NCBI RefSeq assembly: GCF_014358075.1
Contig: NZ_JACONT010000016.1
Coordinates: forward strand, 22,122 to 86,121
Source of the DNA: Sphingomonas albertensis
Lineage (GTDB): Bacteria; Pseudomonadota; Alphaproteobacteria; Sphingomonadales; Sphingomonadaceae
Length of the DNA: 64,000 bases
Direction: 5' to 3'
The notes below the pieces were generated by a model. It was not told the DNA's origin. It ran no database searches and saw only the letters and a list, made by a program, of their open reading frames with translations. A program made the position numbers and the translations under genes. Positions 53,113 to 64,000 of this stretch are shown here, piece after piece. Positions within the stretch are counted from its first letter, which is position 1; each line of letters begins with the position of its first letter.

Positions 53113-54176
53113 GCGACATGATCGAGGCACCCGAGTCCGAGGCGACGGACGCCGAACCCACCACCCGCATGAACATGATTCAGGCGATCAACTCCGCCAT
53201 GGACATCATGATGGAGCGCGACCCCGACGTGATCGTCATGGGCGAGGACGTCGGCTATTTCGGTGGCGTCTTCCGCGCGACCGCCGGGCTCCAGGCCAAG
53301 CACGGCAAGACGCGCGTGTTCGACACCCCCATCACCGAATGCGGCATCATCGGCGTCGCGGTCGGGATGGGCGCGTACGGCCTGCGTCCCGTCCCCGAGA
53401 TCCAGTTCGCGGACTACATCTATCCCGCGCTCGACCAGCTCGTCTCCGAAGCCGCACGCCTGCGCTATCGCTCGGCCGGCGAGTTCACCTCGCCGATCAC
53501 GGTGCGCTCGCCGTTCGGCGGCGGCATCTTCGGCGGCCAGACGCACAGCCAGTCGCCGGAGGGGCTCTTCACCCACATGTCCGGCATCAAGACGGTCATC
53601 CCGTCGACGCCCTATGACGCCAAGGGCCTGCTGATCGCCGCGATCGAGGACAATGACCCAACGCTCTTCTTCGAACCCAAGCGCATCTATAACGGCCCGT
53701 TCGATGGCTATTGGGATCGCCCGTCGCAGAACTGGTCGAAGCACCCGGCCGGCGAAGTCCCGACCGGCTACTACAAGATCGAGCTCGGCAAGGCGAAGAT
53801 CGTCCGCGCGGGCGAGGCGCTCACGATCCTCGCCTATGGCACGATGGTGCATGTGTGCGCCGCGGTCGTCGCAGAGGCGGGCATCGACGCCGAGATCGTC
53901 GATCTGCGCACGCTCGTGCCGCTCGACATCGAGACGATCGAGGCTTCGGTGAAGAAGACCGGCCGCTGCATGATCGTCCACGAGGCTACCCGCACCAGCG
54001 GGTTCGGCGCGGAGCTGTCGGCGATCGTCCAGGAACGCTGTTTCTACCATCTCGAGGCGCCGATCGAGCGCGTGACCGGGTTCGACACGCCATACCCGCA
54101 CAGCCTCGAATGGGCGTATTTCCCAGGGCCCGTCCGTATCGGCGAAGCCCTGAAAAAGATCATGAAGGACGCATAA
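53109..54176 (+). CDS. bkdA2: 2-oxoisovalerate dehydrogenase E1 component, beta subunit
   Basis: Forms the E1 heterotetramer with the alpha subunit. The 355-residue protein has the transketolase-like domain with MGEDVGYFGGVFRAT and TPITECGIIGVAVG, and a C-terminal domain with LRTLVPLDIETI. Its start overlaps the alpha stop by four bases and its stop overlaps the E2 start (TAATG), so all three subunits are translationally coupled. Confidence 0.93.
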   Translation: MSDMIEAPESEATDAEPTTRMNMIQAINSAMDIMMERDPDVIVMGEDVGYFGGVFRATAGLQAKHGKTRVFDTPITECGIIGVAVGMGAYGLRPVPEIQFADYIYPALDQLVSEAARLRYRSAGEFTSPITVRSPFGGGIFGGQTHSQSPEGLFTHMSGIKTVIPSTPYDAKGLLIAAIEDNDPTLFFEPKRIYNGPFDGYWDRPSQNWSKHPAGEVPTGYYKIELGKAKIVRAGEALTILAYGTMVHVCAAVVAEAGIDAEIVDLRTLVPLDIETIEASVKKTGRCMIVHEATRTSGFGAELSAIVQERCFYHLEAPIERVTGFDTPYPHSLEWAYFPGPVRIGEALKKIMKDA

Positions 54177-54597
54177 TGGCCCGCTTCACCTTCAAGCTGC
54201 CGGACATCGGCGAAGGCATCTCCGAAGCCGAGATCGTCGCATGGCACGTCGCCATCGGCGACCGCGTCGAAGAGGACTCGCCGATCGCCGACATGATGAC
54301 CGACAAGGCCACCGTCGAAATGGAGTCGCCGGTGACCGGCGTCGTCGTCGAACTCGCGGGCGAGGTCGGCGACCAGGTGTCGATCGGCGCCGCGCTGGTG
54401 GTGATCGAGACGGATGCGGTGGAGGTGGCGGACGAGGTGGTCGCAGCGCCGCTGACCTCGGCACAGGCCGAAACAGCCGAACAATACGAAGCCGAAAACC
54501 CAGGCGTCGAAGAGGTGGCAACCGAAACTCCCTCTCCCCTCCGGGGAGAGGGTCGGGGTGAGGGGCAGCCCCACGCGGAAACGCCGGCAACTGCCCC
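54176..54597 (+). CDS. bkdB: Dihydrolipoamide acyltransferase (E2), N-terminal part, broken by a homopolymer tract
   Basis: Encodes the first 140 residues of the E2 core. The lipoyl domain has the lipoylated lysine in MTDKATVEM (Lys44). An acidic linker follows, and then a segment encoded by one arm of a hairpin repeat (SPLRGEGRGEGQ). After base 54597 the frame enters a meaningless run of G and C. The missing peripheral-subunit-binding and catalytic domains are encoded on the other strand at 63032-64000. Bases 54572-54597 are identical to the reverse complement of 63975-64000. Joining through them restores a 454-residue protein in frame. The break is probably in the assembly. Confidence 0.88.
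54531..54597. repeat. Left half of a hairpin repeat (family H) inside the E2 coding sequence
   Basis: CCTCTCCCCTCCGGGGAGAGG plus GTCGGGGTGAGGGG form the left arm and are followed by the loop CACGCGGAAACGCCGGCAAC. The matching right arm is found at 63936-63971 in reversed position. In the repaired gene the repeat lies in frame in the linker between the lipoyl and subunit-binding domains. Confidence 0.8.
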
Positions 54598-54789
54598 GGG
54601 GGGGGGGGGGCCCCCCCCCCCCCCCGCCCCCCCGGCGGGGGGGGGGGGGGGGGCGGGGGGCCCGGGGGGGGGGGGGGGGGGCGCCGCCCGGCCCCCCCCC
54701 CCCCCCCCCGCCGCGCGCCCCCGCCCCCGCCCCCCCCCCCCCCCCACCCCCCCCCCCCCCCCCCCCCCCCCCCCCCGCCCCCCCCCCCC
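54598..54789. other. Low-complexity G/C homopolymer tract, probable sequencing or assembly artefact
   Basis: About 190 bases consist only of runs of G and of C, up to more than 20 in a row, with a single A. It interrupts the E2 gene on its left. On its right it meets the outer end of a family A arm (GCCGGGGTGG at about 54790-54799). This is not biologically plausible sequence for the interior of an E2 gene. Confidence 0.85.
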
Positions 54790-54799
54790 GCCGGGGTGG
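54790..54799. repeat. Outer end of a family A repeat arm (truncated)
   Basis: GCCGGGGTGG matches the right end of family A elements. The rest of the element is missing and replaced by the homopolymer tract. Confidence 0.5.
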
Positions 54800-54841
54800 T
54801 ATTGGGGAGGAGCGCTCGCTTTACTCGCGCGTTGACATGGG

Positions 54842-62895: not shown

Positions 62896-62904
62896 TCTTC
62901 CTTG

Positions 62905-63012
62905 CCCCTCCCTGGAAGGGAGGGCTTGGGGGTGGGTCGGCTTCCGTACCACCGAACCGTCGCGACCAAGGCTGACCTACCCACCCCCGGCCCCTCCCTT
63001 TCAGGGAGGGGG
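62905..63012. repeat. Paired-arm palindromic repeat, family B copy 5
   Basis: CCCCTCCCTGGAAGGGAGGG plus GGGGGTGGGTCGG mirrored by ACCTACCCACCCCC and CCCCTCCCTTTCAGGGAGG. It lies between the convergent thiolase and E2 genes. Confidence 0.88.
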
Positions 63013-63031
63013 GAAGGGAGCGTTTTCGGGC

Positions 63032-64000
63032 TTAGTCGGCGAACAAGAGGACGGGGGTTTCGAGATATTTCTTGAGGCCCTGGACGAAGCTGGCCGCGTC
63101 CCAGCCGTCGACGACGCGGTGGTCGCAGCTGATCGACAGGTTCATGAGCTTGGCGCGGACGACTTCGTCGCCCTTGAAGACCGGGCGTTCGACGATCTTG
63201 TTGGGGCCGATGATCGCGACTTCGGGGCGGTTGATGACCGGGGTGGTCGCGATGCCGCCGAGCGGGCCTAGCGAGGTTACGGTGATCGTGCCGCCGCCCA
63301 TTTCGTTGGGGGCGAGCTTGCCGGCACGGGCAGCTTCGGCGAGGCGGGTGATCTCGGTTGCGAGCTGCCAGACGTTGCGGTCCTGCGCGTCGCGGATCAC
63401 GGGGACGGTGAGCCCGGCGTCGGTCTGCGCGGCCATGCCGAGGTGGATGGCGCCGTGGCGCGTGACCACGCCCGCCTCGTCGTCGTAGCGCGCGTTGAGC
63501 ATCGGGAAGTCGGGGATCGCCTTGCAGATCGCGACGATCATCAGCGGCAGCATCGTCAGCTTGGGGCGGCCGCCGCGGTTGGCATTGAGGTCGGCGCGCA
63601 TCGCCTCCAGCGCGGTGACGTCGATCTCGTCGACATAGGTGAAGTGCGGGATCGCGCGCTTCGAGGCGGCCATGTTCTCGGCGATGCGGCGGCGCATGCC
63701 GATGACCTTGATGGGCTGGTCTTCGCGGGCGCGCGACGCGTACGGGGGGTGGTAGCCTTCGCCCGAGCCGTAGCGGAGATAGGCGTCCAGGTCGGCGTGG
63801 CGGACTCGGTCGGAGTCGGTTTTGACGGAGGCCAGGTCGATGCCGAGATCGCGGGCGCGGGCGCGGACTGCGGGGGACGCGAGAGCTTGGGCCTTTTGCT
63901 CCGCATCAGCCGCAGGAACGGGTTGCGCCTTCTGCTCCCTCTCCCCTGCGGGGAGAGGGCTGGGGTGAGGGGCTGGGGCAGTTGCCGGCGTTTCCGCGTG
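63032..64000 (-). CDS. bkdB: Dihydrolipoamide acyltransferase (E2), C-terminal part, runs off the window edge
   Basis: Reading leftward from the window edge, this frame encodes the last 322 residues of E2. The order is linker (HAETPATAPAPHPSPLP), the subunit-binding domain (SPAVRARARDLGIDLASV), and the catalytic acyltransferase domain with HFTYVDEIDVT. The active-site motif is DHRVVDGWDAA near the C-terminus, and the protein ends LETPVLLFAD. It lacks the lipoyl domain within the window. It matches the N-terminal part at 54176-54597 through a 26-base identical overlap. It may continue beyond 64000 as a full gene if the window's neighbour repeats the N-terminus. Confidence 0.9.
   Translation of the reverse strand, partial: HAETPATAPAPHPSPLPAGEREQKAQPVPAADAEQKAQALASPAVRARARDLGIDLASVKTDSDRVRHADLDAYLRYGSGEGYHPPYASRAREDQPIKVIGMRRRIAENMAASKRAIPHFTYVDEIDVTALEAMRADLNANRGGRPKLTMLPLMIVAICKAIPDFPMLNARYDDEAGVVTRHGAIHLGMAAQTDAGLTVPVIRDAQDRNVWQLATEITRLAEAARAGKLAPNEMGGGTITVTSLGPLGGIATTPVINRPEVAIIGPNKIVERPVFKGDEVVRAKLMNLSISCDHRVVDGWDAASFVQGLKKYLETPVLLFAD
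63936..64000. repeat. Right half of the family H hairpin repeat inside E2
   Basis: TCCCTCTCCCCTGCGGGGAG and GGCTGGGGTGAGGGGC form the arm complementary to that at 54531-54565. The loop follows and is cut by the window edge. Confidence 0.8.

What the first reader, a model, noticed from the sequence alone, without database searches (positions are those of the whole stretch)
54176..64000. E2 gene split between opposite strands: inverted or falsely joined segment
Seen directly: E2 residues 1-140 are on the plus strand (54176-54597), and the remaining residues are on the minus strand (64000 to 63032). The last 26 real bases of the first part (54572-54597) equal the reverse complement of the last 26 bases of the window. 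Joining at base 54571/64000 gives 132 plus 322 residues, in frame, with lipoyl, subunit-binding and catalytic domains in the normal order. The simplest explanation is that 54598-64000 is inverted or wrongly joined relative to the true chromosome. A real inversion that disrupted the bkd operon is possible but would not explain the homopolymer tract. What follows base 64000 is unknown.
Basis: seen in the sequence. Interest (0 to 1): 0.8.

Follow-up and report, generated by a model that had tools for sequence, protein, structure and literature searches.

The report
Hairpin repeat misassembles intact E2 gene
A metabolic gene that looks cut in two and flipped in this genome assembly is very likely intact in the bacterium: the assembly was probably misjoined at a hairpin-prone repeat inside the gene, in a flexible linker where related bacteria carry different repeat families in frame.

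Summary
Base 64000 is the end of contig C8. The split is very likely an assembly misjoin. In relative G018 the segment lies the other way round and E2 is one gene; E2 is one open frame in 78 of 81 relative loci. The G/C tract is bounded by palindromic repeats. A second such tract, in contig C24, joins places 0.76 Mb apart in G018; contig C7 holds the true continuation. Of 106 contig edges, 54 carry such palindromes, against 3 of 106 stretches slightly further in. Likely cause: reads stop at the hairpin and no-signal G tails bridge unrelated stops.

Beneath the artefact is a real feature: the E2 linker holds an inverted pair of dispersed palindromes in frame, and relatives hold other families there: 60 of 77 linkers, seven peptide classes, at least 42 class changes on a 76-row tree. 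In-frame palindromes are known (Rickettsia RPEs, intragenic REPs); occupation of one linker by many families was not seen in the paper listings obtained. A profile search found no RAYT transposase in G000.

The parts
51823..53112 (+). E1 alpha subunit of a branched-chain 2-oxoacid dehydrogenase
   Evidence: E1_dh 1.1e-97, OxoDH_E1alpha_N 6.1e-17
53109..54176 (+). E1 beta subunit
   Evidence: Transket_pyr 7.5e-40, Transketolase_C 1.2e-37
54176..54571 (+). E2, first 132 codons: lipoyl domain and first half of linker
   Evidence: Biotin_lipoyl 5.2e-19; alignment to four intact E2s
54530..54566 (+). first arm of the in-frame palindrome pair (class F1), core 54530-54552
   Evidence: the G018 counterpart folds as one hairpin
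54572..54597 (+). spacer of the palindrome pair, copy 1; last true bases before the tract
   Evidence: 26 bases identical to the reverse complement of 63975-64000
54598..54792 (.). G/C tract marking the false join
   Evidence: 194 G/C and 1 A; begins with G, ends with C-rich sequence
54789..54800 (-). probable remnant of a second, unrelated palindrome (R2b class) entered from the other side; overlaps the end of the tract
   Evidence: sequence read by eye; R2 or R2b palindromes start 31-167 bases beyond the DUF4174 match in 8 of 11 relatives with sequence there
54842..55219 (+). DUF4174 protein gene (inside the wrongly oriented segment)
   Evidence: PF13778 2.5e-26
55284..56681 (+). glutathione-reductase-like pyridine nucleotide-disulphide oxidoreductase
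   Evidence: Pyr_redox_2 1.6e-67, Pyr_redox_dim 1.7e-34; 'glutathione-reductase-like' is recalled
57148..60105 (+). outer membrane beta-barrel, TonB-dependent-receptor-like protein
   Evidence: PF25183 2.4e-62, PF00593 1.2e-05 (below its cut-off)
60173..61633 (+). putative glucoamylase family protein
   Evidence: PF10091 1e-73
61699..62895 (+). thiolase (convergent neighbour of E2 in relatives)
   Evidence: Thiolase_N 1.4e-60
62905..63011 (.). intergenic palindrome pair of another class (R3) between thiolase and E2
63032..64000 (-). E2, remaining 322 codons: second half of linker, E3-binding domain, catalytic domain
   Evidence: E3_binding 3.6e-06, 2-oxoacid_dh 3.2e-79; 94.6% identical to G018 E2 residues 136-452
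63937..63959 (-). core of the second arm of the in-frame palindrome pair
   Evidence: sequence
63975..64000 (-). spacer copy 2; contig C8 ends here

Best explanation
The E2 gene is very likely intact in the organism, and its halves lie on opposite strands only because contigs were probably misjoined at an inverted pair of palindromic repeats inside the gene's linker. Shown: the linker holds the paired palindromes; the window ends at the contig end in their loop; a G/C tract unlike anything in the relatives follows the other copy of the loop; relatives hold the segment the other way round. Inferred: short reads stop when they enter the second arm of the hairpin. On a two-colour instrument the missing signal would be called G. 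Poly-G tails and their reverse complements then overlapped tails from another palindrome stop, beyond DUF4174, and the assembler joined the two stops. The true order is therefore very likely E1alpha-E1beta-E2, then, convergent with E2, thiolase, glucoamylase, the beta-barrel protein, the reductase and DUF4174, then contig C52. The palindrome pair is read in frame as linker, and in relatives that place is held by other palindrome families.
For: Window = C8:22122-86121 and C8 is 86121 long. G018: window 51737-54570 matches plus, 63975-63034 continues after it, and 62899-60057, 59980-59944 and 59787-54827 follow reversed. G018 continues beyond DUF4174 through a palindrome into the sequence that starts contig C52. 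E2 is one open frame in 78 of 81 relative loci; thiolase lies downstream on the opposite strand in 29 of the 32 loci that hold it, DUF4174 in 12 of 12. Second case: C24 has an 86-base G/C run; its left flank is G018 C1:703743-704443, its right flank C1:1466353-1466996; C7 starts with the same 47 bases as C24:40488-40534 and matches G018 from 703655 on. 54 of 106 contig edges carry a palindrome core in the outer 130 bases, against 3 of 106 at 251-380 and 21 of 240 in the window interior; for contig starts alone 41 of 78 against 2, and 43 of 91 without the edges of contigs picked from earlier hits. The G018 palindrome pair folds as one hairpin, -46.6 kcal/mol, z -7.4. Loss of signal read as poly-G on two-colour instruments: PMC13218037 (passages). 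Two other assemblies start a contig at this linker: L182 in the loop of an F1 pair, L245 just before an F5-like pair.
Against: No reads or instrument record were available, so the poly-G step is inferred. In Sphingomonas sp. 8AM E2 is also split at its palindrome pair, about 1.27 Mb apart, without a long G/C tract. That may be another misjoin or a real break. 52 of 106 contig edges show no recognised palindrome.
Confidence: 0.86

Rival explanations
1. The join is false but arose otherwise: faulty gap closing or scaffolding filled the hairpin gap with low-quality bases, without two-colour poly-G reads.
For: No instrument data. The tract is a mosaic of G and C runs rather than one run. Palindromes at contig edges would cause gaps on any short-read platform (inference).
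Against: In both tracts (C8 and C24) each flank reads into G on its own strand, which is what loss of signal on two-colour chemistry predicts.
Confidence: 0.1
2. A real inversion disrupted the bkd operon in this strain.
For: The order as assembled; E2 is also split in Sphingomonas sp. 8AM without a long G/C tract.
Against: Both halves keep the whole 26-base spacer, which a simple cut-and-flip would not duplicate. The 195-base G/C tract has no like in 1.56 Mb of relatives (longest run 38). The same kind of tract joins places 0.76 Mb apart in C24. Both halves remain conserved with no stop.
Confidence: 0.03
3. The 26-base inverted repeat is a recombination site and the segment is a programmed invertible switch of E2.
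For: A perfect 26-base inverted repeat bounds the segment.
Against: The switch needs a partner copy beyond DUF4174. None of the 11 relatives with sequence held there shows the spacer (up to 4 changes) or an F1 core in the next 800 bases; a twelfth, L175, holds one base there. None of the five genes of the segment that were scanned looks like a recombinase. The repeat ends exactly at the contig end.
Confidence: 0.01
4. On the linker: the changes between relatives come from homologous exchange of ready-made linker alleles between species, not from fresh insertion of palindromic elements.
For: The F4 linkers of L174, L175 and L176 have similar spacers and tails although L176 groups with the F1 row L171. 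F1 linkers of the close clade share one spacer type.
Against: Across the genus, seven classes occupy the place; four of them (F2, F3, F4, F5) were each found dispersed in their own genome and F1 in G000 and G018, so several separate insertions are needed.
Confidence: 0.4

Closest known systems
Rickettsia palindromic elements (RPE; described in PMC10969869 and PMC3733652, passages read; Ogata 2000 and 2002 known here only as citations in them)
   Same: Short palindromic dispersed repeats read in frame inside protein genes, from several families.
   Different: RPEs hit many unrelated genes. Here one linker of one protein holds seven peptide classes in different species, while none of 20 paralogous E2 regions (taken to be PDH and OGDH types) matches any class peptide; 3 of 19 of those linkers do have three or more dispersed DNA matches, none ten.
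Intragenic GTAG and CGTC REPs (PMC3733652, passages read)
   Same: REPs and REP pairs inside coding regions, also in S. alaskensis (taken to be Sphingopyxis, recalled). That paper reports no dedicated transposase for CGTC REPs and suggests that insertions may be neutral in flexible linkers; it also notes different REPs at about the same site of recB in two Xanthomonas species.
   Different: The E2 element F1 has neither a GTAG nor a CGTC tag in the G018 copy (by eye). 'dihydrolipo' does not occur in its main text; its supplementary list could not be read.
REPINs (PMC3116915, passages read)
   Same: Two inverted REPs forming one unit, many copies, mostly extragenic.
   Different: REPINs go with a RAYT gene. 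None was found in G000.
Two-colour poly-G artefact (PMC13218037, passages read)
   Different: Here it would have been assembled into contigs and joined two unrelated places.

Membership tests
Branched-chain 2-oxoacid dehydrogenase E2 | Lipoyl, E3-binding and acyltransferase domains in this order, beside E1 alpha and E1 beta | tested here: met
   domains, on the two pieces apart; and 29 gene order in relatives
REPIN / RAYT-associated REP | Two palindromes in inverted orientation forming one hairpin | tested here: met
   for the G018 copy
REPIN / RAYT-associated REP | Many dispersed copies in the genome | tested here: met
   49 of 57 match rows in G000 lie at the palindrome part of the query (40 of 227 candidates scored); for G018
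REPIN / RAYT-associated REP | Mostly extragenic | tested here: met
   of 21 elements in the window, 2 lie wholly inside a called ORF, one in the E2 N-part and one at 44930 that precedes the likely ATG; 63937 is in the E2 C-part; two more (29409, 42986) overlap a called ORF in part. Gene calls by a rough GC3 method
REPIN / RAYT-associated REP | A RAYT (Y1 transposase, PF01797) in the genome | tested here: not met
   no match in G000, 97.1% complete; the E. coli control rings; 6 of 21 genomes searched match
GTAG/CGTC REP superfamilies | Terminal GTAG or CGTC tag | tested here: not met
   F1 copy read by eye; an R6-class copy at the C4 edge does show CGTC
Rickettsia palindromic elements | In-frame insertion in a conserved gene | tested here: met
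Rickettsia palindromic elements | Sequence homology to RPE families | not tested
   no RPE sequences were compared
Two-colour poly-G artefact | Each flank reads into G on its own strand | tested here: met
   both tracts
Two-colour poly-G artefact | Made on a two-colour instrument | not testable with these tools
   no read or instrument record

The most novel reading that the evidence does not exclude
The linker of the branched-chain E2 in Sphingomonas is a standing landing and exchange site for palindromic mobile DNA: at least seven unrelated families have entered the same place in frame, again and again replacing one another even between near-identical species, so that selfish hairpins supply the enzyme's flexible linker, and some agent other than a RAYT moves them.
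Probability: 0.4. Interest if true: 0.65.

Novelty: new variant of a known kind. Interest (0 to 1): 0.45.

Why it matters
The split gene itself is very likely not real. Its signature, a G/C-only tract bounded by hairpin repeats and a duplicated short overlap, marks false joins that could be screened for in other assemblies and that break gene models and synteny. If the linker reading holds, it offers a natural series in which one domain linker has been rewritten many times by different palindromic families. That would let one test how palindromic elements enter genes without killing them, what moves them where no RAYT is found, and how freely an E2 linker can vary.

Tried and rejected
Real inversion and programmed inversion were considered and rejected (see rivals). 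RAYT as the mover in G000 was tested and not found. Three controls failed and were redone. The E1 beta query was in the wrong frame and was redone. The E3-binding query was in the wrong frame and was not found, so the linker end there was approximate; it was redone by motif. The catalytic control was spoiled by three unmasked loci and was redone. The possible second intragenic palindrome at 44930-45039 lies before the likely ATG of an AAA ATPase gene and was dropped. Same-order outgroup linkers L027-L029 could not be read, because the longest frame found did not read as E2. Rows dropped: 3 of 81 loci have no E2 N-part beside the C-part (L182, L212, L245); one of 78 (L196) had no recognised E3-binding motif and is missing from the 77; one further row lacked enough upstream sequence for the tree, which has 76 rows. 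One of 20 paralog linkers (L261) could not be cut out for the DNA test. The peptide classes F1-F7 were defined after seeing the sequences; L191 matched two classes and was counted as F6 in the tree. The 28 contig ends were not a random draw: seven belong to contigs met earlier; the figures for starts alone and without such contigs are. Paper searches gave nothing to the point in their listings.
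Full report
WHAT WAS CHECKED. E2 starts at 54176 on the plus strand and its remaining 322 residues read from 64000 to 63032 on the minus strand. The 26 bases 54572-54597 equal the reverse complement of the last 26 bases of the window and the identity ends there. The halves carry the lipoyl domain, then the E3-binding and catalytic domains. They align end to end with E2 of four relatives, sharing the residues HAETPATA at the overlap. 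The tract 54598-54792 is 194 G/C bases and one A. Its G/C-only runs are 153 and 50 bases long; the next longest in the window is 21, and the longest in 81 relative loci (1.56 Mb) is 38.

THE SPLIT IS VERY LIKELY A FALSE JOIN. The window is C8:22122-86121 and C8 has 86121 bases, so base 64000 is a contig end. In the near relative G018 (5 contigs), window 51737-54570, then 63975-63034, then the stretches from 62899 down to 54827 reversed follow one another on one strand, and E2 is one frame. Beyond DUF4174, G018 goes through another palindrome pair into the sequence that opens contig C52 of the window's genome. The named loci were the best 80 of 560 that encode a relative, mostly Sphingomonas and kin by title. 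Among these and G018, both E2 parts are present in 78 of 81, always on one strand, adjacent and in one open frame. Thiolase lies downstream on the opposite strand in 29 of the 32 loci that hold it, the reductase in 17 of 18, DUF4174 in 12 of 12. None of the 78 shows the window's arrangement.

THE SAME ARTEFACT TWICE. Contig C24 has an 86-base G/C run at 40531-40616. Its left flank matches G018 C1:703743-704443 and its right flank C1:1466353-1466996, 0.76 Mb apart. The first 47 bases of contig C7 equal C24:40488-40534, at the edge of the run, and C7 goes on from G018 C1:703655, close to where the left flank leaves off. In both tracts each flank reads into G on its own strand. That is what an instrument does which calls loss of signal G (PMC13218037, passages); the instrument is unknown, so this step is inferred.

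WHY THERE. The E2 linker holds an inverted pair of palindromes. The complete G018 copy folds as one long hairpin, -46.6 kcal/mol as DNA, z-score -7.4, none of 200 shuffles as good. Both window copies run through their own arm and the spacer and stop within a few bases of where the opposite arm should begin. The other edge of the tract looks by eye like the first bases of a different palindrome (R2b); R2 or R2b palindromes start 31-167 bases beyond DUF4174 in 8 of the 11 loci with sequence held there. Of 108 contig edges fetched out of 160, two begin with N. Of the other 106, 54 carry a palindrome core in the outer 130 bases, against 3 of 106 at bases 251-380 of the same edges and 21 of 240 stretches inside the window. 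For contig starts alone it is 41 of 78 against 2; without the edges of contigs picked from earlier hits it is 43 of 91. Three named assemblies are also broken at this linker. L182 begins in the loop of an F1 pair and L245 just before an F5-like pair. Sphingomonas sp. 8AM (L212) has its E2 parts about 1.27 Mb apart, parted between the two arms of an F3 pair (the distance takes contig C2 of G035 to be the record of L212). The last has no long G/C tract and may be a misjoin or a real break.

THE REAL FEATURE. The palindrome pair is read in frame as part of the linker, and other species carry other families there. In 77 linkers, 60 show peptides of seven classes: F1 19, F5 13, F6 8, F4 7, F2 6, F3 4, F7 2, and one row matching both F4 and F6; 17 show none. 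The classes were named after seeing the sequences, so a DNA test was added. Linker DNA has three or more dispersed matches elsewhere in the held loci in 45 of 77 cases, against 0 of 77 for equally long catalytic stretches, 2 of 77 for E1 beta and 3 of 19 for paralogous E2 linkers. With ten or more matches it is 30 of 77 against 0, 0 and 0; with one or more it is 65 of 77 against 11, 13 and 9 of 19, so the lenient cut separates less well. F1 linkers score low in this test, 1 to 5 matches each. None of the 20 paralogous regions matches a class peptide. In four genomes the linker pair was sought in the same genome and found as a dispersed element: 80 match rows for L177 (F2), 45 for L174 (F4), 32 for L206 (F5), 18 for L239 (F3) (rows include the query's own place and count both strands; 40 candidates were scored where there were more). 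F1 is dispersed in G000 (49 of 57 rows lie at the palindrome part) and in G018. F6 and F7 were not sought in a genome.

TURNOVER. On a tree of 76 rows built from E1 beta, lipoyl and catalytic DNA without the linker, the class changes at least 42 times; 300 shuffles give 48.9 with standard deviation 1.9, lowest 44, so some inheritance remains but little. Leaving out the 16 rows without a class, 60 rows need at least 32 changes (shuffles 36.3, standard deviation 1.7). The tree is a quick one and 23 of its 73 inner branches are weak, which can inflate the counts. Sister rows L171 (S. aurantiaca, F1) and L176 (Sphingomonas sp. Leaf34, F4) are 97.3% identical over 1305 bases of E1 beta and lipoyl DNA and 96.8% over the catalytic domain, while their linkers match only in the first part. 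Some of this is probably exchange of linker alleles between species, since F4 linkers of three rows have similar spacers and tails. Counts of changes are therefore not counts of insertions.

WHAT MOVES THEM. A search for the Y1 transposase family of RAYTs found none in G000 and matches in 6 of 21 genomes, with E. coli ringing as a control. The elements work like REPINs in build and dispersal, but this genome fails the RAYT feature, so I do not file them as RAYT-associated REPINs. [quoted passage not shown] PMC10969869 (passages) reports in-frame Rickettsia elements. None of the passages shown mentions E2. Searches listed no paper on this linker, but each showed only its top 10 to 20 rows; the supplementary list of PMC3733652 was not readable here and may contain it.

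VERDICT. The finding is very likely a misassembly; the poly-G route is the likeliest mechanism but is inferred. The palindrome-bearing linker is real sequence, seen in many assemblies, and a new variant of a known kind of in-frame palindrome. Whether it serves the enzyme is untested.

Noticed in passing
L212 (Sphingomonas sp. 8AM) near 9800, and L273: E2 is split between the two arms of an F3 palindrome pair and its parts lie about 1.27 Mb apart; the neighbour at the C-part reads like a TonB-type proline-rich protein cut at its start (by eye). Misjoin or real break is unresolved.
   Followed up: partly
G000 C24:40531-40616 and C7:1-47: A second G/C-only run joins two places 0.76 Mb apart in G018; C7 holds the true continuation of the left flank.
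   Followed up: yes
contig edges of G000: Several palindrome classes (R1, R2, R3, R4, R6, one R2b) sit at contig edges, often with the edge in the loop of the pair (by eye).
   Followed up: partly
window 44930-45039: An R3 palindrome pair lies inside a long open frame but before the likely ATG of an AAA ATPase gene, so it is probably intergenic and the frame's start is overextended.
   Followed up: yes
C68 and C78 starts in G000: The first bases of these short contigs read as N in what I was given.
   Followed up: no
G006 C77:7225-7581 and G010 C1:2623107-2623391: Two of the 12 same-genus relatives searched carry a Y1 transposase domain; whether palindromes lie beside it was not examined.
   Followed up: no
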